Shown one piece after another: positions 3,357 to 48,206 of a stretch of DNA of 64,000 bases. Numbering within the stretch: the stretch's first letter is position 1; every line of letters starts with the position of its first letter. The DNA comes from Fimbriiglobus ruber (lineage in GTDB: Bacteria; Planctomycetota; Planctomycetia; Gemmatales; Gemmataceae): the NCBI RefSeq assembly GCF_002197845.1, contig NZ_NIDE01000005.1, positions 496,001 to 560,000 on the forward strand, read 5' to 3'. The notes under the pieces were generated by a model that did not search any database, was not told where the DNA came from, and worked only from the letters and a program-made list of their open reading frames with translations. The position numbers and the translations under genes are program-made.

Positions 3357-4901
3357 TGTTGAAACACATTAGAAATGTCCGGCCTTAACTCGTTAGAAAT
3401 GTCCTCCTTGTTCATGCCAAGGAGGACGTATGTCTACCGAGCTACAAGATTGGGGCATTCTAGCCATGAGTCAGCGCGAGCGTGACGTTTTGGCGATTCT
3501 GAAGGCGGTGGTATCGGGAGATCGGACGGTTACGGAAGCCGCTGGTTTGTTGAAGTTGAGCGCGCGTCAGGTCCGGCGACTGAAGGGCAAACTGAAGACC
3601 CAGGGTGACAGCGCCCTGGTGCATGGCCTTCGAGGTCAGCCGTCGAATCGCTGCCTGGAAGCCAAGCTGCGAACGCAGGTGCTGGCGGCGTACCGCCAGC
3701 GTTACCGCGACTTCGGCCCCACCTTCGCGTGCGAGAAGTTGGCGGAAGAAGGGTTGAAGGTGGGCGTCGAAACGCTGCGTCGCTGGTTGCTGGCCGAGGG
3801 CTTGTGGGAACGCCAACGTCGCCGTGACCCGCATCGCAGTCGTCGGCCGCGACGGGCTTGTTTGGGCGAGTTGGTGCAGATGGACGCCTCGGTGCATGAG
3901 TGGCTGGAGGGTCGCGGCGAGACGATCGTTCTGATCACCATGATCGATGACGCCACCAGCCGCGTCGAAGCGAAGTTTTACCGGCATGGGAGCGTGGAAT
4001 CGCACCTGGATTTGTTGGGGGTCTGGCTGCGGAAATACGGCCGACCGCTGGCGGTTTACACGGATCGACACAGCATCTTCGAGCCGCACGAGAAGGGACG
4101 TCCGCTCGCCGATCCCGACGCGCAAACGCAGTTTGGCCGAGCGCTCGGCGAACTGGCCATAGAGTTGATTCGGGCGCACAGTCCCCAGGCGAAGGGACGT
4201 GTCGAGCGTTCGTTTGGCACGGCTCAGGATCGGTGGGTCAAGGAACTGCGGTTGGCCAAGGTCACGACCTGCGAGGACGCCAACGCGTTGTTGGCGAAAC
4301 TCCTTCCCGACCACAACAAGCGGTTCGCCAAGCCGGCGCGTCAGCCAAACGATGCCCATCGACCGTTGGGTCGAGATCACAAGCTGGCGTCGATCCTGTC
4401 GATTCAGAGCGAGCGGGTGGTGAGCAACGACTACGTGGTGCGTTTCGCGAATACGTTCTACCAATTGTTGCCGCCAGCGTACCCGGGAGAGCGTGGCGGC
4501 CGGGTGGTGATTGAGCAGAGACTGGATGGGACGCTGCACATTCGGTTCGGGAAGCGTCATTTGCCGTACCAGGAGATCACCGTGGGGGGCAGCCTTGGGG
4601 GCTCTGCCCCCAAACCCCCGGAGTTTAGCGCATCAGCGGCCGATGCCAGTGCGGAGACGACGGGACGGGAGCCGGTCAAGGACTCCCGTCCCGCGGGCAT
4701 GCAGCCGACTGCCGGACGCTCGGGTCGCACTCCTGCGGAGCCCTATCCTTCCGGCGGCGAGGAGGTAGATAACCCGAAGCGATCGTACCGTCCAGCTCCA
4801 AATCATCCTTGGCGAAAACGTCTATGATGAGTGGAAATATGTCCCGGGGGAGGACATTTCTATTGGGGCCAAACCCCGGACATTTCTAATGGGGCGTGAC
4901 A
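3357..4901 (+). mobile_element. Complete IS1202-like (ISNCY family) insertion sequence, 1545 bp
   Basis: The ends are TGT...ACA. The reverse complement of the right end and the left end both reach CATTAGAAATGTCCGG after ten bases. A second, subterminal copy of the motif (TAGAAATGTCCTCC) lies inside each end, left about 3392-3405 and right about 4851-4866. A perfect 17-bp duplication flanks the element. It carries one transposase gene. It landed between R2 and the DUF433 gene and interrupts no visible gene. Confidence 0.88.
3430..4827 (+). CDS. ISNCY/IS1202-type transposase (465 aa)
   Basis: DDE transposase with an N-terminal helix-turn-helix region (TEAAGLLKLSARQVRRLKG) and a catalytic core: QMDAS.HEW (first Asp), VYTDRHSIF (second Asp) and KGRVERSFGTAQDRW (Glu within the VERSFGT motif). 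It cuts and joins the element's own ends. RBS is GGAGG before ATG 3430. Near the 3' end (about 4586-4620) a G/C-rich hairpin (TTGGGGGC-TCT-GCCCCCAA) is read through as a Gly/Ser/Pro stretch, and the C-terminal 80 residues are low-complexity, so this tail may be a later addition. Frame intact; probably active. Confidence 0.92.
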   Translation: MSTELQDWGILAMSQRERDVLAILKAVVSGDRTVTEAAGLLKLSARQVRRLKGKLKTQGDSALVHGLRGQPSNRCLEAKLRTQVLAAYRQRYRDFGPTFACEKLAEEGLKVGVETLRRWLLAEGLWERQRRRDPHRSRRPRRACLGELVQMDASVHEWLEGRGETIVLITMIDDATSRVEAKFYRHGSVESHLDLLGVWLRKYGRPLAVYTDRHSIFEPHEKGRPLADPDAQTQFGRALGELAIELIRAHSPQAKGRVERSFGTAQDRWVKELRLAKVTTCEDANALLAKLLPDHNKRFAKPARQPNDAHRPLGRDHKLASILSIQSERVVSNDYVVRFANTFYQLLPPAYPGERGGRVVIEQRLDGTLHIRFGKRHLPYQEITVGGSLGGSAPKPPEFSASAADASAETTGREPVKDSRPAGMQPTAGRSGRTPAEPYPSGGEEVDNPKRSYRPAPNHPWRKRL

Positions 4902-4918
4902 CGCAGTCAACTTCAGGC
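4902..4918 (+). repeat. Right target-site duplication of the IS1202-like element
   Basis: Exact copy of 3340-3356, adjoining the terminal ACA of the insertion sequence. Confidence 0.85.
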
Positions 4919-18079: not shown

Positions 18080-18162
18080 AAGAAAGTGCTTGGCTAGGGC
18101 ATCTGTCCGCGCTACCCTCCGTCTTGCACGGGCAATCCCGTCCGGTGAACCAGTGAGGGAAT

Positions 18163-18579
18163 ATGAGTCAGCCAGGTATCGGTGCGATGGTGCATTATCT
18201 GACCGGCGGGTCGAAGCACGATCCGAAGGAGTATTACGGAAAGAGAATCACGAGCGCGGAGTTTGCGGACAACCGCCTGCTGATCGGCTTCGAGGGCGGG
18301 GTCCGAATCGCTATCTTCGATGACGGCCAGAGTTGCTGCGAGTCCCGGTACATGACCACCGCTGACGACGTGACGTGGCTTGTTGGGAAGACCCTCAAGG
18401 CGATCGCCGCGAAGGAGGGGCCGGAAGTTGAGGGCGAATGCGGCGACTCCCACGAGCAGGTCTTCCTCGAAATCGAAACGCCTGACGGTAGCATCACCTT
18501 TGCGAATCACAACGAGCACAACGGATATTACGGCGGCTTCGGGCTGACGATCGAAGAAGTTGAAAGAGAGGTGGCATGA
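18163..18579 (+). CDS. DUF7448 domain protein of phage type (138 aa)
   Basis: Contains the DUF7448 pattern: DNRLLIGFEGGVRIAIFDDG, QSCCESRYMTTADD, VFLEIETPDGS and FANHNEHNGYYGGFGL. The role of the family is unknown; it is common in phage accessory regions. It is the first gene of the RNA-repair operon, RBS GAGGGAAT before ATG 18163, and overlaps the next gene by four bases (ATGA). Confidence 0.85.
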   Translation: MSQPGIGAMVHYLTGGSKHDPKEYYGKRITSAEFADNRLLIGFEGGVRIAIFDDGQSCCESRYMTTADDVTWLVGKTLKAIAAKEGPEVEGECGDSHEQVFLEIETPDGSITFANHNEHNGYYGGFGLTIEEVEREVA

Positions 18580-19502
18580 CGCGGACGGTGATTTTCGATA
18601 TCGACGGCACGTTGGCGGACGCAACCCATCGACTTCATCACGTCACGAAAGAACCCAAGAACTACGACGCCTTCTTCGCCGCAGTTGGGGATGACCCTGT
18701 CATCGAACCGATCCGCGAGTTGGCCCAGGTGCTTGCCAGGCAGGATTACAAGATCATCCTCGTCTCCGGCCGGTCGGACAAAGTCCGCGAACAAACACTG
18801 GATTGGCTCGGCCGCCACGAGGTACCGTGCGATGAACTGCACATGCGGAGAGAGGGGGACTACCGGCAGGATTTCACCATCAAGTCGGAAATCCTCGACG
18901 AACTCCTCGCCGACGGAAACGAGATCGCGTTCGTGGTGGACGACCGGCCGAGTGTGGTCGCCATGTGGCGGGAGCGCGGTTTGACTTGCCTCCAGTGCAG
19001 GGACTGGGATGAGGCTCCTCACGTAAATCCGGGGTTGCTGACTGTCATGGTCGGCCCTTCCGGTGCGGGAAAGAGCTACTGGTTGACAACCGATGAGGCC
19101 TGCGGGTTCGGTATCGATCCCTCCCACATCGTAAGTAGCGACCAGCTCCGGGCCGATCTCTGCGGTGATTTCCGCGATCAGACAAAAAACGACGAGGTTT
19201 TCACGGCACTGCATGCGGTCGTCAAAACACGCCTGGCCCACGGCCTTCCCACAGTTGTGGACGCCACGAACCTGAGACGGAAGGATCGCCTCTCTGTTGT
19301 CGGGCTGTCTGCCGGAATGGTTCGATACGTCGTGATCGATCGGCCGACGGAAGACAAGCGGAGGGACGCGGGGTGGCGAGCAACGCTGCCGTTCGACCTG
19401 ATCGCGAAGCACGACCAGACGTTCCGCAGTCAGTTGCGTGACATCCTGGCGGGTGATGGGCAGCCCAATGTTGAGGTCCTTGACCTACGGAGGGCGGCAT
19501 GA
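18576..19502 (+). CDS. Polynucleotide phosphatase-kinase, reversed domain order (308 aa)
   Basis: Residues 1-145 are a HAD phosphatase (FDIDGTLAD with Asp 8 and Asp 10, later VSGRSD and VVDDRPSVV). Residues 152-308 are a P-loop kinase (GPSGAGKSYW, residues 160-169; then VVDATNLRRKDR). Together they would remove a 3' (cyclic) phosphate and add a 5' phosphate, healing broken RNA ends. T4 Pnkp has kinase first and phosphatase second; here the order is reversed. The next gene is an RNA ligase, coupled by ATGA, completing a heal-and-seal pair. Confidence 0.9.
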   Translation: MTRTVIFDIDGTLADATHRLHHVTKEPKNYDAFFAAVGDDPVIEPIRELAQVLARQDYKIILVSGRSDKVREQTLDWLGRHEVPCDELHMRREGDYRQDFTIKSEILDELLADGNEIAFVVDDRPSVVAMWRERGLTCLQCRDWDEAPHVNPGLLTVMVGPSGAGKSYWLTTDEACGFGIDPSHIVSSDQLRADLCGDFRDQTKNDEVFTALHAVVKTRLAHGLPTVVDATNLRRKDRLSVVGLSAGMVRYVVIDRPTEDKRRDAGWRATLPFDLIAKHDQTFRSQLRDILAGDGQPNVEVLDLRRAA

Positions 19503-20620
19503 GACACCCGGCGCGAGCAATCTCTTTCGACGACTTATGGGCCGGATTACAAGAAGCCAGGGCCGCGAAGCTGGTAACCGAGAACGTTGGGAACGATGGG
19601 CTCCGGCTTTATTGTTACTCCGAATCCTGTGTTTACGAACGCCAGTGGAGCGAAGTCACGATGCTAGCGCGGGGAATTATTCTCGACCCCGAAAGCAAGC
19701 GGGTTGTGGCCACTCCCTTCCCCAAGTTCTTCAACGTCGGTGAGCGATTGGATTCCGTTCCCGATCTGCCCTTCGAGACATTCGAGAAGTTGGACGGCAG
19801 TCTCATCATTCTGTTCCACCACAAGGGGGAGTGGAGGACTGCGACCAAGGGCAGCCTTGGCTCGGATCAAGCGAAGTGGGCCGCGAATTGGATTTCCAGC
19901 CACGATTTATCGGTTCTTGATCCGGACACGACTTACCTCGCGGAGGCTCTTTACCCGGAGAACCGAATAGTGGTGCATTACCAGCATACCGGGCTCGTTC
20001 TACTCGGGGCCTACAGCGGGGACGGAATGGAACTGGGCTACGGCGAGCTTTGCGGCTTGAGCGACCGGCTCGGTTGGAGAATCGCCAAGCGGCACGCGTT
20101 CACCGCGGTCTCGGAGTTGCTCACCCTAGCGAAGGAACTTCCCCCAACCGAAGAGGGGTTCGTGCTGCGGTTCTCGAACGGACTCCGGTTGAAGGTGAAG
20201 GGAGATGAGTATTGCCGCATTCATCGGCTGGTATCTCGCCTTACCCCGCTGGCGATGTGGGAAGCGATGCAATCTGGAGGCGGCCTTGAAGCGATCCGGC
20301 GCCAATTGCCGGAGGAGTTCTGGGCCGACTTCGACGCGATCACAGGCACTCTCCAGCAAAACATCGACAAGTTGATCGCAGTGGTCCAGATCGAGGCGGA
20401 AGCAGTGGCCGGTCTAACGGACAAGGAAGTCGGGTTACGGCTTGCGACCTTCCCCGAAACCGTGCGGCGGTTCATTTTCCCGTTTCGGAATAACGGGGGT
20501 GACTTGCTTTCGGGCAAGACCCGGGAGTTGGTATTCCGCACGATCCGGCCGACAGGGAATGTGCTTGAGGGGTATGTCCCGTCCTATGCCATCAACCGGG
20601 TGATGGACGAAGCCGCGTGA
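19499..20620 (+). CDS. T4 Rnl1-like RNA ligase (373 aa)
   Basis: Nucleotidyltransferase motifs in order: I at EKLDGS (Lys 97 takes AMP), preceded by LARGIILDPESKRVVATPF as in Rnl1 ligases; motif III region LAEALYPENRIVVHY (147-161); IV at EEGFVLRF (218-225); V at LKVKGDEY (231-238). The C-terminal 130 residues are helical, as in Rnl1, which uses this part for tRNA specificity. It joins a 3'-OH to a 5'-phosphate in RNA. In T4 such a ligase repairs tRNA cut by host anticodon nucleases; the same role is inferred here. Confidence 0.9.
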   Translation: MRHPARAISFDDLWAGLQEARAAKLVTENVGNDGLRLYCYSESCVYERQWSEVTMLARGIILDPESKRVVATPFPKFFNVGERLDSVPDLPFETFEKLDGSLIILFHHKGEWRTATKGSLGSDQAKWAANWISSHDLSVLDPDTTYLAEALYPENRIVVHYQHTGLVLLGAYSGDGMELGYGELCGLSDRLGWRIAKRHAFTAVSELLTLAKELPPTEEGFVLRFSNGLRLKVKGDEYCRIHRLVSRLTPLAMWEAMQSGGGLEAIRRQLPEEFWADFDAITGTLQQNIDKLIAVVQIEAEAVAGLTDKEVGLRLATFPETVRRFIFPFRNNGGDLLSGKTRELVFRTIRPTGNVLEGYVPSYAINRVMDEAA

Positions 20621-20787
20621 CGCCTGACGAATTCATCCGCATCTGCGAGGCGATCTACGGTGCGGGCTGGCAGTCGAAGCTGGCCCGCGACCTCGTCCGC
20701 GAGCCCAGGACCATCCGCCGGTGGAAGTCCGGGGAGAGCCCGATACCGAGGGCGGTGGTGGAGTGGCTTAAGTATAAACGGGGCTGA
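20617..20787 (+). CDS. Small HTH-type protein after the RNA ligase (56 aa)
   Basis: GTG start overlapping the ligase stop (GTGA). The sequence TPDEFIRICEAIYGAGWQSK, LARDLVREPRTIRRWKSGES and PRAVVEWLKYK reads as a compact helix-turn-helix with a WKSGE recognition turn. A small protein of the same layout follows the DNA methyltransferase (39489). Possibly an autoregulator of the operon. A terminator overlaps its last codons. Confidence 0.65.
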   Translation: MTPDEFIRICEAIYGAGWQSKLARDLVREPRTIRRWKSGESPIPRAVVEWLKYKRG

Positions 20788-20827
20788 TGGTTACGTCCAT
20801 TTATGGACGACATGGCCCCGTTTTTTT
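20776..20827 (+). terminator. Rho-independent terminator of the RNA-repair operon, nested hairpin
   Basis: AAACGGGGC (20776-20784) pairs with GCCCCGTTT (20815-20823), followed by a seven-T run (20821-20827). The loop holds a second perfect hairpin, CGTCCAT-TT-ATGGACG (20794-20809). The left arm covers the last sense codons and the stop of the small HTH gene. Confidence 0.9.
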
Positions 20828-28112: not shown

Positions 28113-31043
28113 TTACCCCAACTCGTGGGTAAGATCGCGGCGTTTTTCCATTCCCCGACTTCTCACGCCGTCCATGACTCGGGATCCAAGCTCGCGCAGG
28201 AATGCTACCCGTTTCTTGAGCTTGTCTTTGATTCCCTTACGCGGAGCCCGAACGAGCTCGGACGCAAGCATCCGTTGATCGTCCCGTTGGATCGCTTCGT
28301 AAAGGCTCGCTTTGTCTGAGGTGTAGACCGTCGCGCGTTCGCGGCCTCGACTTATCGAGACGTAGAACTGTTCTTTCCCGGAGGCACGGAACGACTGGGC
28401 GGACTGGGCTATGAGGACTCGATCGACGGTGCGGCCTTGCGAAGCATGGCTGGTCACGACATATCCCGGCGCGAGATGCCCGAAGTCTTTGGAGATGACC
28501 CAGCTGTTGTTGAGGCGGATGTTCCCGGCATCGGTGAAGCCGTCCACCGTGTAAGTGGAGCCGTTGTTCAGGCGGTGGTTTCCGGAGAGGTCTTTGCCGT
28601 TGGCGGTGATCCTGACGGAGTCGCCAATCGCGAGAGCGAGCGACGAACGATCGTATACGGCAATAGACTTCGCTCGCTGGGCAAGCTCGTCACGGTTTCC
28701 CGCGTCGACCCCCACGCGGTCTCCAGCTTTATGAGTGCCCGCAGATCGAACGAATACCGCCACACGCCCTTCGAGATTGGCTGATTCAGACCGTTCCGCT
28801 TCGGTAAGATGCACAGGCGATAGCCCGTCAAATGTCTTCTCCTCACCCTTCAGCCTCCCCTCCTGTTTCAGACGTGCCCGAATCACCGCAGTGACCTGGT
28901 CTCCCTCGGCGTGCGTTGGGCTTACAACGAGTACCGACTTCCCGTCACGGATCGCGGATACGTAATCTCCGGCGATGTCGCCACCCTGCTTCACCCAACC
29001 GAGCCTGTCAAGCTTCTCGAAAGCATCTGAAACTCTACCCTGACTGGCGAGTTTCACGGCCTCGCGGTACTCACCACCCTGACGGCGGATTTCTGAAACC
29101 TCGGCTACCGGTAGGCCGGCGCGGTCTTCGAGTAAGGTCAGGACATCACCACGGGCAACGCTCTTGTGCTGGCGGCGGTCGCCCAGGAGGAGAACTCTGG
29201 CGTGGATTGAGTCAGCTACCTGAATGAGACGAGCCATGTCGTGAGCGCCCGCGAGAGAAGCTTCGTCGAGGACGATGAGGCCGTTGCGGGCTTTCTGTTG
29301 GGTTTCTTCATCAAGGAGGAACTTCGCGAGGGTTTCTGCGTTCTCAAAGCCCTCGCGGCGGAGAACGCCACGGGAGGCTTCAGCGGAAGGCGCGAGGATC
29401 ACCCAGGGGACATCAACTCCTTTTAGGAGGGCTTTCGTCATGTGCGTCTTGCCGGTGCCGGCAGCACCTCTGATGAGGATCAGGGGATCGCGGGAGTACC
29501 AGGCATGACGGACGGCTGCGAGTTGGGAGGGGGTGAGGTCGACCTTTTTCGGTTGCTCAGCGAGGGTAAGTGTGACAATATCGGACTCGTTACACGTCGA
29601 TCCGTAAGCAGTGTCCAACTTTTGCGGGTTTGAAGGCCGCTTCGATTCGTCGGGGCGGCCTTTTTCTTGACCGTTGGATAGGTTTGTGACAAGGTCGGGA
29701 TCGGCAGGTAATTCCTTTATCTTGCCTGCGCCTTCCATCGGTTGGCTATGAGCCGCGGGAGATGTGGGGGTGAGGGTGCTGCCAGTAGAAACCGCTTGCT
29801 CGAATGGAGAGGATGCGGCATTATGCGGCAACACGACCGGGGTCACCACGCCCCGGTCTTCTGCTTTCCCCAACGGCTTCCACCTGCCCCTTCCCTTTTG
29901 AGCGAACTCCAGAATCTTCCGCTCTTCGTTTAAGACTCCTCTCGTCGTGACCATCGTTCTGCCGTCGACTTCGCGGCGGATGAGGTCCTTACGGCTTCCC
30001 AGTTCCTTGTAGATGCCTTCGGGAGTAACCGAGCCGAGACCATGCTTCAGGGCGGTGGTTACGAGATCACGTTCAGGAACGACAGAGGAACGCTCAAAGC
30101 TGTGCCGCATCGCCCAATCGAGAGCAGCGGCGTTGGCGAGTTCAGGGAGAGTCTCTTTGTGAGCGACCGTTTCATGGATGGCGTGGCGTTCCCGGAGAGT
30201 TATTCTGTCCTCCCATCCCTTCACAAGAGAGTCCCAGGTCTGGCCTTCTTTCTTGGGTTCCCTGGTAGTGGCACCGAGTTTGGCTTTGGTCTCGGGTTTC
30301 TTGATTCCAAGTAAGTCCGCGGTTTTCTCGATGAGTGTTGTTCGGCGGGAGAATTCCTTGATGGTTCGTTCGGGAACTCCGGTGACTTCAAAGTCGTCCT
30401 TCGTTTTGCGGATTTCGTATCCCAGGGCTTGGAGGCGGTTTGCCAAGCGGGTGCGGAACATTGCTTGAAAGTAAGGAGCATCGGCTTTGATGCCTCCGAA
30501 TTGCCCGGCTTTCCACTGTTTTTCTTCGCTGTCCCAGGTCGCGTTAAAGACCACGGCATGAACGTGAAGCTGAGGGTCTGGGGTTCCGTTGATGGGTCTT
30601 GAAGTGTGGTGCGTGAAATCTGCCCAGATTAGGTTGCCGGTTTTACGATCGAAGTCGGCGCCCTTCCTTCGGACGCGGGTGGACATCTCTCGTTCGATCT
30701 CGGCCATCGTGTCGGCTACAGCGCCACGGAATTCATTGGGGAGACGATCGTCTTGACCAAGGGCGTAGAGGATGGAGATGGACTTGCTGACACTGAAAGT
30801 CAGGTCGTATCCAACTCGGCGGTTCTCCAGGTGTTTTGCGGTTAGCTGGAGGCCGCTTTTGGGGTGGAGGTTGTCGCAGAGGCGCTCGAAGTCTTCCTTT
30901 GCTACGGTTCCTTCGAGGCCGAGGAGGGCAGCACCCTTGCCGTGCCAGTGGGCGGTTTGCTCCTGGCCCTCGATCATATAATCGGCGACCGAATAATATT
31001 TCTTCGCTGAGGCAGAGTTGGGGATGGCGTTGATCCTCAGCAT
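28113..31043 (-). CDS. trwC: MobF/TrwC-type conjugative relaxase-helicase (976 aa)
   Basis: N-terminal relaxase: tyrosines Y16, Y17 and Y22 (AKKYYSVADYM), DLTFSVSKSIS (80-90) and the metal-binding H160-x-H162 in DPQLHVHAVVFN. C-terminal helicase: Walker A GAAGTGKTHM (about 525-534), Walker B IVLDEASL (about 580-587), LLLGDRRQH. It nicks at an origin of transfer, stays bound to the 5' end and unwinds DNA for conjugation. ATG 31043 follows GAGGTG and starts the conserved MLRINAI; longer readings enter the HNH gene. No coupling protein or type IV secretion genes are seen nearby, so it may only be mobilisable. Confidence 0.93.
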   Translation of the reverse strand: MLRINAIPNSASAKKYYSVADYMIEGQEQTAHWHGKGAALLGLEGTVAKEDFERLCDNLHPKSGLQLTAKHLENRRVGYDLTFSVSKSISILYALGQDDRLPNEFRGAVADTMAEIEREMSTRVRRKGADFDRKTGNLIWADFTHHTSRPINGTPDPQLHVHAVVFNATWDSEEKQWKAGQFGGIKADAPYFQAMFRTRLANRLQALGYEIRKTKDDFEVTGVPERTIKEFSRRTTLIEKTADLLGIKKPETKAKLGATTREPKKEGQTWDSLVKGWEDRITLRERHAIHETVAHKETLPELANAAALDWAMRHSFERSSVVPERDLVTTALKHGLGSVTPEGIYKELGSRKDLIRREVDGRTMVTTRGVLNEERKILEFAQKGRGRWKPLGKAEDRGVVTPVVLPHNAASSPFEQAVSTGSTLTPTSPAAHSQPMEGAGKIKELPADPDLVTNLSNGQEKGRPDESKRPSNPQKLDTAYGSTCNESDIVTLTLAEQPKKVDLTPSQLAAVRHAWYSRDPLILIRGAAGTGKTHMTKALLKGVDVPWVILAPSAEASRGVLRREGFENAETLAKFLLDEETQQKARNGLIVLDEASLAGAHDMARLIQVADSIHARVLLLGDRRQHKSVARGDVLTLLEDRAGLPVAEVSEIRRQGGEYREAVKLASQGRVSDAFEKLDRLGWVKQGGDIAGDYVSAIRDGKSVLVVSPTHAEGDQVTAVIRARLKQEGRLKGEEKTFDGLSPVHLTEAERSESANLEGRVAVFVRSAGTHKAGDRVGVDAGNRDELAQRAKSIAVYDRSSLALAIGDSVRITANGKDLSGNHRLNNGSTYTVDGFTDAGNIRLNNSWVISKDFGHLAPGYVVTSHASQGRTVDRVLIAQSAQSFRASGKEQFYVSISRGRERATVYTSDKASLYEAIQRDDQRMLASELVRAPRKGIKDKLKKRVAFLRELGSRVMDGVRSRGMEKRRDLTHELG

Positions 31044-31062
31044 CGTGAGCACCTCAGCCGGG

Positions 31063-31575
31063 TCAGATGTGGTTCCACTTTTTGCGATTTCCGATATCCC
31101 GAGCATGGGAATGGCTGATGCCAAAACGTTTTGCAATAACCGGAGATCGAACGCCGGCCTTCCACAACTCACGAATCTGTAAGACAGCATCGTCCGTGAG
31201 CTTCGCGTTGTATCGTTGCGTTCCCTTCGGATTTCTGCCATGTCGCTCAGTGTCTTGGCAGTTCTCTCGTTGCGTACCCCAAAGGAGGTTTTCGACTGAG
31301 TTGTTTAGCTTATTTCCATCTAAATGGCGGACGACGTTCCCGTTCAAAGCGGGTGTCAGGAAAGCGTCAGCGACGAGCCGGTGAATGTAGTGAGGGTAAC
31401 AGTCAACGCCGACTACCAGATATCCATTTTTCCCTTGGTAGCCTTTTCGGGGGACAAGGACATTGGATGGTCCTTTGACCCGACGATAAGCAGTGCCTGT
31501 CGCCGACACGAAGACGTTCGGAAGTCCTGGGACTTCGCGGATATTGAACTGCATCAACCGATTGATCGAAACCAC
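31063..31575 (-). CDS. HNH homing endonuclease-like protein (170 aa)
   Basis: NUMOD4/HNH_3 layout: an N-terminal IREVPGLPNVFVSATGTAYR, HNH core YIHRLVADAFLTP...VVRHLDGNKLNNSVENLLWGT, then a C-terminal HTH (VIAKRFGISHSHARDIGNRK). Free-standing homing endonucleases of this kind cut near their own locus and spread. It sits in the 20 bases upstream of the relaxase, between it and the gene at 31696, probably as an insertion into that operon. Confidence 0.85.
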   Translation of the reverse strand: MVSINRLMQFNIREVPGLPNVFVSATGTAYRRVKGPSNVLVPRKGYQGKNGYLVVGVDCYPHYIHRLVADAFLTPALNGNVVRHLDGNKLNNSVENLLWGTQRENCQDTERHGRNPKGTQRYNAKLTDDAVLQIRELWKAGVRSPVIAKRFGISHSHARDIGNRKKWNHI

Positions 31576-46833: not shown

Positions 46834-46837
46834 CTAG
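46834..46837 (+). repeat. Left CTAG target duplication of the IS701-type element
   Basis: CTAG, repeated at 48207-48210. IS701-family elements duplicate YTAR tetranucleotides, which this fits. Confidence 0.8.
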
Positions 46838-48206
46838 CAGTACAGCGCGTATTTTACGTAACACGTTTGTGCCGCTGCTTCTTATGAGATCGGGTGGCTT
46901 GCTTGTTTCGCCGCTGGTGGTATTGAATTACGTCGCTGGTATGTTGGGTGGCCCCGGTTCCCCGTCGCCGCCGGAACAGGATCGCGCACCGGACGTTGAG
47001 CGCCCGGCACACCTGCTCCATCGTCACGTCTGGGTTTTTCCCCCCGGAGCCGCTCCGTGTGGGCGGCGACGAATCCGAGGACGACCACGGCCAGGGTCAG
47101 GTGCCGCATCAGCCCCGTGTAATCCCGCCCCTCGTAGTGCATCAGTCCGACTTCCTGTTTGGCGACCCGGAATAGATGCTCGACCGTCCACCGGCGGAAG
47201 GCGACGGCGAGAATCCGAGCCACCGGCTCGGCCGTGGCGTTCGTCAGGAAGTACTTGATCTCCCCGGTCGCGTCGTTGCGGGCGACCATCAGGGTGTGCT
47301 TGCGGTCGGCCACCCAGACGATGGCGGTGGCCACCCGCCAGACCGACGGGCGGGTCGTCTGGCGGGTCAACCGGTACACTCGCCCCCGCTCGGCGTGACC
47401 CCCGGTCAACCGCTCGTCGGCCCGCCGGGAGGGGCCCCCGGCCGCGTCCCGGACGGCGAAATTCGTCGGGATTTCACCCACGAACCGCTGTCCCATCACG
47501 CCCAACACGGTCAGGAGCGGGACGGCTGCCCCGTACCCTTCGTCGAACGTCAGCCAGTCGAACGTGATCCCGTTCGTGTTCGCCCGGAGGAGTTGGTCGA
47601 GGGCCAGCCGCCACTTCGGGTGGTGCCGGACGGTGTCCGGGATGCCGGCCGCCTGACACCGCGCGCGGTCCACGTCCCACGACTCGGGTAGGAACAGGTC
47701 GGCGTCCAACAGGGTACGAAAGGTGCCCTTGGTGACCCCCACGTGGACGGTCACGATCCCATTGTCGACCTTGCCCACACACCCCAGGTACTGCCGTTGG
47801 ACGCCCGGAGTGTGATCCCCCACTTCCGGCTGCTCGTCTCGTCGATCACCCCGACCGTTCCGACGGGATCGGTCGGGAGATCGGCCAGCGTATCGGCCAC
47901 GAATCGGTGCAACCGCGTCCGGGCCTCGTCGTACGACCACACCGAGGTCGTCACGAACAACTGGAGGGTACGGACCGTCGTCCCGCTCGCCAACGCGATC
48001 GGTTCGATCGATTTCCGCGGCAGGTCGGATAACAGGCCCCGACAATACGTGTCGAAGTGGGCGGCCGTGCGGTCCTGCCGGAACACGTCCCGATACCGGC
48101 CCAGATACCGGGCGAACGCCGGGCCGACGCCCACGATTTCCTGCTCGGTCATGTGATTCCTCCTAAATCCTTCCCTCCCATCCTATTAAATTACTGCGCT
48201 GTACTG
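46838..48206 (-). mobile_element. IS701-family insertion sequence, 1369 bp
   Basis: Terminal inverted repeat CAGTACAGCGC at both ends, flanked by CTAG on each side. It carries one transposase gene on the minus strand, broken by two frameshifts. It lies inside the phage early operon in the same orientation as the gene it interrupts. Confidence 0.88.
46854..48152 (-). pseudogene. IS701-type transposase with two compensating frameshifts
   Basis: The first part (from 48152) reads PRKSIEPIALASGTTVRTLQ and GVIDETSSRKWG with the first catalytic Asp. At the run CCCCC (47817-47821) the frame moves to GDHTPGVQRQYLGCVGKVDN, then LTFDEGYGAAVPLL (second Asp) and AFRRWTVEHLFRVAKQEVGL (catalytic Glu). At the T5-C6 run (47035-47045) it moves back to DVTMEQVCRALNVRCAILFR and ends at 46854. 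Both shifts are at homopolymers, so they could be sequence errors or decay. Confidence 0.85.

What the first reader, a model, noticed from the sequence alone, without database searches (positions are those of the whole stretch)
18163..20827. Compact RNA heal-and-seal operon: DUF7448, phosphatase-kinase, Rnl1-like ligase, HTH protein
Four genes coupled by four-base overlaps end in a strong terminator. The healing enzyme has phosphatase before kinase, the reverse of T4 Pnkp, and the ligase has all nucleotidyltransferase motifs. In T4 the pair repairs tRNA cut by host anticodon nucleases. The addition of DUF7448 and a small HTH protein as fixed partners is worth attention; DUF7448 could be an unrecognised part of RNA repair.
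Basis: partly seen in the sequence, partly recalled or inferred. Interest (0 to 1): 0.62.

Follow-up and report, generated by a model that had tools for sequence, protein, structure and literature searches.

The report
Prophage RNA-repair gene cassette in planctomycete
A virus integrated in a planctomycete bacterium carries a compact set of genes for cleaning and rejoining broken RNA, probably to undo bacterial RNA-cutting defences; this kind of system is known from other phages, and the mysterious extra gene (DUF7448) turns out to be a common phage gene that is not generally tied to RNA repair.

Summary
Observation confirmed: four ORFs chained by 4-base overlaps: DUF7448 (18163-18579), HAD phosphatase-P-loop kinase (18576-19502), T4-Rnl1-family ligase (19499-20620), 56-aa HTH protein (20617-20787), then a strong terminator. 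They lie in a prophage (terminase, portal, head genes at 56-63 kb). A second, colinear prophage on the same contig carries the unit at 99.7% over 2.67 kb, without the terminator. The heal-and-seal reading is well supported: invariant catalytic motifs, ligase model closest to T4 Rnl1 (Z 26), dN/dS about 0.1, and phosphatase-kinase plus RNA-ligase pairs recurring in other phages, twice with a different RNA-ligase family. 'DUF7448 and HTH as fixed partners' is half wrong. DUF7448 has a ligase or HAD phosphatase within 6 kb in only 3 of 80 viral loci, and DUF7448 is near 0 of 161 phosphatase-centred loci. The HTH gene does follow the ligase in three other planctomycete cassettes (one decayed), all without an adjacent DUF7448. 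Phosphatase-before-kinase order also exists in Caulobacter jumbo phages. Verdict: a phage RNA-repair cassette, a new member of a known kind; tRNA as substrate and counter-defence as purpose are inferred, not shown.

The parts
18163..18579 (+). DUF7448 protein, 138 aa; common phage protein of unknown function, translationally coupled to the next gene by ATGA overlap
   Evidence: 61-62% identical relatives in viral contigs; model of mostly strands, mean pLDDT 80
18576..19502 (+). End-healing enzyme, 308 aa: HAD 3'-phosphatase (res. 3-143) then P-loop 5'-kinase (res. 155 onward)
   Evidence: PF25109 E 6e-35, AAA_33 E 9e-15; PDB hits Pnkp1 and T4 PNK (phosphatase) and, for the kinase part, a chain deposited as metallophosphoesterase; invariant DxDGT, P-loop, SDxxR
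19499..20620 (+). T4 Rnl1-family ATP-dependent RNA ligase, 373 aa; motif I lysine K97
   Evidence: PF09511 E 9e-15, phrog_562 E 5e-53; AF2 mean pLDDT 91; best fold match T4 Rnl1, Foldseek 3e-17, Z 26
20617..20787 (+). Small HTH protein, 56 aa, GTG start, overlapping the ligase stop
   Evidence: phrog_3626 E 2e-10; relatives directly after the ligase in Zavarzinella, a planctomycete MAG and G499
20776..20827 (+). Intrinsic terminator (hairpin 20776-20823 and T run), overlapping the HTH stop codon; present in this copy only
   Evidence: absent from copy 2
18100..20766 (+). Unit present a second time in the genome (contig C5 897900-900567), 99.7% identical, flanks next to the unit unrelated

Best explanation
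It is a prophage-borne RNA-repair cassette. When a ribonuclease (most likely an anticodon-cutting defence nuclease, or a toxin) cuts RNA and leaves a 2',3'-cyclic or 3' phosphate and a 5'-OH, the HAD domain removes the 3' phosphate, the P-loop kinase phosphorylates the 5' end, and the Rnl1-type ligase adenylates and seals the ends, keeping translation alive during phage growth. The HTH protein is most likely a regulator of the cassette or of phage early genes. DUF7448 is a separate phage accessory gene that has come to lie, translationally coupled, at the head of the cassette in this lineage. Shown: gene content, order, motifs, fold, conservation, prophage setting, second copy, lack of a general DUF7448 link. 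Inferred: enzyme activities, RNA (not DNA) as substrate, tRNA as the target, counter-defence as purpose, the HTH role.
For: Domain families and catalytic residues: DIDGT, SGR, K103 and DD122-123 of the HAD domain; GPSGAGKS, D189, R192 of the kinase; K97, E149, E219, K232, K234 of the ligase. Ligase model closest to T4 Rnl1 (Z 26, 233 residues at 2.1 A), then fungal tRNA ligase Trl1 (Z 20-21); DNA ligases much lower (Z under 12, apart from a protein titled 'putative DNA ligase' at 15). Purifying selection, dN/dS about 0.1 where dS is measurable. Phosphatase-kinase plus ligase on one strand recurs in viral contigs L106, L109, L110, L111, L112, L113, L115 and in planctomycetes (L187, L188/Zavarzinella formosa, G499 remnant); in L189 and L190 the same enzyme is coupled to a different RNA-ligase family, PF09414. 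The L187 cassette also has RlaP, the 'RNA repair pathway' nucleotidyltransferase; an RlaP gene lies about 10 kb upstream of copy 2. Phage structural and replication genes in the window. The phage role of ligase, PNK and RlaP sets is laid out in PMC7824862.
Against: No activity, expression or substrate data. No PrrC/RloC-type AAA_13 anticodon nuclease was found in the host genome, so the counterpart nuclease is unknown. No phage tRNA genes in the window. The C-terminal domain of the ligase is placed differently from T4 Rnl1 (full-length rmsd about 13 A), so tRNA specificity is not shown. The host's own congeners keep the ligase alone outside phage context (G001, G002), so a host role is possible. 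PNK and ligase could also act on DNA ends.
Confidence: 0.75

Rival explanations
1. DUF7448 is a genuine but rare functional part of RNA repair (for example an RNA-end or tRNA binding subunit), recruited in this phage lineage.
For: Translational coupling (4-base overlap) kept in both copies; the whole unit including DUF7448 is what is 99.7% identical; strongly conserved polar motifs (D53, C58-C59-E60, R62, HNEHNGYYGG); one viral contig (L101) has DUF7448 about 160 bp after a HAD phosphatase and two have a ligase within 2-4 kb.
Against: 3 of 80 DUF7448 viral loci, 0 of 161 phosphatase-centred loci, no DUF7448 in any other PNK-ligase cassette; only 5 of 50 DUF7448 viral contigs hold any related ligase. 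The only recurrent neighbours of DUF7448 are generic phage genes, in at most 7 of 80 loci. The two copies in this genome are one event, not two observations.
Confidence: 0.1
2. The cassette serves the host: a domesticated RNA (or DNA-end) repair operon that answers endogenous toxin or stress damage, with the HTH as its regulator.
For: Same-genus genomes G001 and G002 keep the ligase (65-68% identical) without PNK, G002 among ordinary chromosomal planctomycete genes; Rhizobium plasmids carry a 54% identical ligase beside rtcR and rtcB; prophages can benefit a lysogen.
Against: Both copies are inside colinear prophages; Zavarzinella's copy is on a contig classed as viral by IMG/VR, and the MAG cassette is near a putative integrase gene; PNK relatives are found in only 4 of 398 other genomes of the class.
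Confidence: 0.15
3. The enzymes repair DNA ends for phage recombination or replication, not RNA.
For: PNK enzymes in general accept DNA as well as RNA (established knowledge); the viral contig L106 has a recombinase-like gene (read as RecT by eye) directly before PNK; L113 has a DNA ligase next to the Rnl1 gene.
Against: Ligase family and fold are RNA-ligase specific; coupling of the same PNK to a second RNA-ligase family and RlaP nearby.
Confidence: 0.07

Closest known systems
Bacteriophage T4 Pnkp (pseT) + Rnl1 (rnlA) tRNA repair
   Same: Same two activities predicted; ligase of the same family, length and fold, with all catalytic motifs; HAD phosphatase matches T4 PNK (1ltq, E 7e-12)
   Different: Phosphatase precedes kinase; genes adjacent and coupled in one operon, with an HTH gene; temperate planctomycete phage; ligase scores below the TIGR02308 T4-RnlA equivalog cut-off (51.8 vs 242)
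Caulobacter jumbo phage '3'-phosphatase, 5'-polynucleotide kinase' (CcrBL9, CcrSC and others)
   Same: Same domain order, 38-40% identity over 96%
   Different: Single gene with no ligase annotated beside it within 5 kb in CcrBL9
Mycobacteriophage Omega (cluster J) Pnk gp136 + RNA ligase gp162
   Same: Phage-encoded PNK and RNA ligase proposed to repair host-cut RNA (PMC3706429)
   Different: Genes not closely linked there; here an operon
[quoted passage not shown]
   Same: HAD phosphatase closest by sequence to Pnkp1 (4xrp, E 7e-17); heal then seal
   Different: No Hen1 methyltransferase in the operon; domain order reversed
PNK-ligase-HTH cassettes of Zavarzinella formosa and planctomycete MAG JAIOPV010000152
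   Same: Same three genes in order with 4-base overlaps, 69-79% identical enzymes
   Different: No DUF7448 next to them; followed by HD_4 and DUF6166 or RlaP genes

Membership tests
T4 Rnl1-type RNA ligase (PF09511) | Profile match above curated cut-off | tested here: met
   55.6 vs cut-off 28.3 bits
T4 Rnl1-type RNA ligase (PF09511) | Nucleotidyltransferase motifs I (KxDG), III, IV (EG), V (KxK) | tested here: met
   K97, D99-G100, E149, E219-G220, K232, K234 invariant in 18 sequences and aligned to T4 Rnl1
T4 Rnl1-type RNA ligase (PF09511) | Rnl1-like C-terminal domain (tRNA specificity) | tested here: inconclusive
   Helical C-terminal domain predicted, but the full-length alignment has rmsd about 13 A
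T4 RnlA equivalog (TIGR02308) | Score above the equivalog cut-off | tested here: not met
   51.8 vs 242 bits
Polynucleotide kinase-phosphatase (HAD type) | HAD_PNKP phosphatase domain and P-loop kinase domain with catalytic residues in one protein | tested here: met
   PF25109 120.9 vs 27.6 bits, AAA_33 55.6 vs 27 bits; motifs invariant
T4 Pnkp architecture | Kinase N-terminal, phosphatase C-terminal | tested here: not met
   Phosphatase 3-143, kinase from 155
Bacterial Pnkp of the Hen1 system (TIGR04075) | Full-length match | tested here: not met
   55.9 vs 750 bits, kinase part only
DUF7448 as an RNA-repair component | Neighbourhood association with PNK or RNA ligase across genomes | tested here: not met
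   3 of 80, 0 of 161, 5 of 50
Phage counter-defence against anticodon nucleases | Repairs tRNA cut by a host nuclease in infection | not testable with these tools
   Needs biochemistry and infection assays; no AAA_13 (PrrC/RloC-type) gene found in this host

The most novel reading that the evidence does not exclude
DUF7448 has been recruited here as a third working part of the repair machine (for example an RNA-end binding or ribosome-rescue factor), and the small HTH protein is a damage-responsive switch that turns the cassette on when RNA is cut; together a self-regulated, phage-borne RNA-repair operon not described before.
Probability: 0.08. Interest if true: 0.6.

Novelty: new member of a known kind. 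Interest (0 to 1): 0.3.

Why it matters
It shows a compact, co-transcribed version of the T4 tRNA-repair idea in prophages of planctomycetes, a phylum whose phages are little studied, and implies that planctomycete phages meet RNA-cutting defences. The conserved PNK-ligase-HTH order gives a small, testable unit. It also clears DUF7448 of a general role in RNA repair.

Tried and rejected
DUF7448 as fixed partner: rejected on neighbourhood counts. DUF7448 fold search: model mean pLDDT 80, no Foldseek match below E 0.06, best second-look Z 6.1 to an immunity protein (PIM7) and a scatter of MutM and hot-dog hits at Z 3-4.5, all within the range of chance; sequence profile against PDB gave nothing. 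PADLOC: no defence family for any of the four proteins. AAA_13 (PrrC/RloC type) in the host genome: none found. tRNA and Rfam scans of the window: none. No paper in the held library mentions DUF7448; the survey by Burroughs and Aravind 2016, cited by papers read here, is not held. Early viral scans with single sequences found only one relative each of PNK and ligase; the alignment-based scan was needed.

Full report
What is there. The four ORFs are at the stated coordinates and overlap by four bases each. Pfam finds DUF7448 (E 7.7e-12), HAD_PNKP (6e-35) followed by AAA_33 (9e-15), and RNA_lig_T4_1 (9e-15); the last ORF, starting at GTG, is a small HTH protein by PHROGs. The hairpin 20776-20823 with its T run is strong (-27.7 kcal/mol, z -5.1).

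Setting. The species is not told; the size suggests Fimbriiglobus ruber (from memory, not tested). The right part of the window is a prophage: terminase subunits, portal, head morphogenesis and maturation protease at 56-63 kb, plus SSB and NinB-like recombination genes. A second region of the same contig is colinear with almost the whole window (window 779-63972), pieces mostly 79-93% identical. It carries TerL (87% aa) and portal genes, and the same four-gene unit at 99.7% over 2.67 kb. Immediately beside the unit the flanks are unrelated. A unit far more alike than its surroundings points to recent recombination or gene conversion between the two prophages (inference). Only these two loci in the genome encode the ligase, PNK or DUF7448. 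Two further related segments keep only 129 and 99 bp of the 3' part of the HTH gene, ending at the same base 20766, so the cassette looks like variable cargo. Copy 2 lacks the terminator and has a different HTH tail.

The enzymes. The HAD domain is closest in PDB sequences to Pnkp1 of the Pnkp1-Rnl-Hen1 complex and to T4 PNK; the kinase domain matches chains deposited under the name metallophosphoesterase (from memory, the Clostridium thermocellum Pnkp kinase domain) and the kinase part of TIGR04075. Catalytic residues are invariant in three homologues. The ligase matches T4 Rnl1 by sequence (2c5u, E 2e-8) and by fold: AF2 model pLDDT 91, Foldseek E 3e-17, Z 26 over 233 residues at 2.1 A; next fungal tRNA ligase Trl1 at Z 20-21; most DNA ligases under 12. 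The C-terminal domain is not superposed in the full-length match, so tRNA specificity is open. dN/dS is about 0.1-0.2 for the enzymes where dS is measurable, many dS values being near saturation.

Who else has it. Full-length phosphatase-kinase relatives with a ligase gene downstream on the same strand occur in viral contigs L106, L109 and L110 (adjacent), L111 (0.3 kb), L112 (0.9 kb), L113 and L115 (about 2 kb). In L189 and L190 (Asticcacaulis and Sphingosinicella genomes) the enzyme overlaps or abuts a PF09414 RNA ligase upstream. Two independent RNA-ligase families tied to one healing enzyme is the best evidence from context that its work is on RNA. In planctomycetes the order PNK-ligase-HTH recurs in Zavarzinella formosa (IMG/VR contig L107), MAG JAIOPV010000152 (L187) and, frameshifted, in G499 (L283). 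The MAG cassette is followed by HD_4 and RlaP genes; RlaP is predicted to restore nucleotides before ligation (PMC7824862). RlaP also lies about 10 kb upstream of copy 2.

DUF7448. It is rare in planctomycete genomes (1 of 392, this one) but frequent in viral contigs (116 confirmed, up to 62% identical). A ligase or HAD phosphatase lies within 6 kb in 3 of 80 loci; a related ligase anywhere on the contig in 5 of 50; none of 161 phosphatase-centred loci has DUF7448. Its few recurrent neighbours are generic phage genes. The family has invariant D53, C58, C59, E60, R62 and HNEHNGYYGG motifs and a confident but unmatched beta-rich model. The proper reading is an unknown phage accessory protein that sits at the head of this cassette in one lineage.

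HTH protein. It follows the ligase with a 4-base overlap in Zavarzinella and the MAG, and is fused in frame behind the ligase remnant in G499. It diverges fast (about 40% identity, dN/dS 0.3-0.5). Regulator of the cassette is the most likely role (inference).

How it most likely works. Ribonuclease damage leaves 2',3'-cyclic phosphate (or 3' phosphate) and 5'-OH; HAD phosphatase and kinase convert these to 3'-OH and 5'-phosphate; the ligase seals. T4 uses this against PrrC, and phage surveys interpret such sets as counter-defence. The particular nuclease is unknown; the host genome has no AAA_13 hit.

Novelty. Phage PNK-Rnl1 repair is known; phosphatase-first enzymes exist in Caulobacter jumbo phages. 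What is new is the compact operon with the HTH gene in planctomycete prophages. I file it as a new member of a known kind.

Noticed in passing
28113-31241 (-): A TrwC relaxase-helicase gene (PF08751 E 9e-70) lies in the backbone of the prophage and recurs at 80-95% identity in three other loci of the genome (C5 907 kb, C17, C19), a phage-plasmid or phage-ICE hybrid by the look of it.
   Followed up: partly
window 779-63972 vs C5 about 882-938 kb: Two colinear prophages on one contig, pieces mostly 79-93% identical, with the repair unit at 99.7%: recent local homogenisation between resident prophages.
   Followed up: partly
L019 7986-14741 (Rhizobium phaseoli plasmid pRphaR620c): The closest ligase outside planctomycete genomes and viral contigs (54% identical) stands beside rtcR and rtcB, with an unlisted ORF between them that looks TROVE/Ro60-like by eye: an Rnl1-type ligase in an Rtc repair locus.
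   Followed up: no
L283 5100-12400 (G499): A decayed, frameshifted PNK-ligase-HTH cassette lies next to genes that read like a type III restriction system.
   Followed up: no
C5 887653-888057 (L290 15653-16057): RlaP-family nucleotidyltransferase about 10 kb upstream of the second operon copy, in the same prophage; no RlaP hit in the window's own prophage part.
   Followed up: partly
window 20766: Four related segments of the genome share a homology breakpoint at exactly this base inside the HTH gene; the other three continue alike (GTTGAGGGA...) while the window copy switches to its terminator sequence.
   Followed up: partly
3357-4902 and 46835-48206: Stretches 99.9% identical to other contigs (C10 and C19), probably recently moved insertion sequences.
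   Followed up: no
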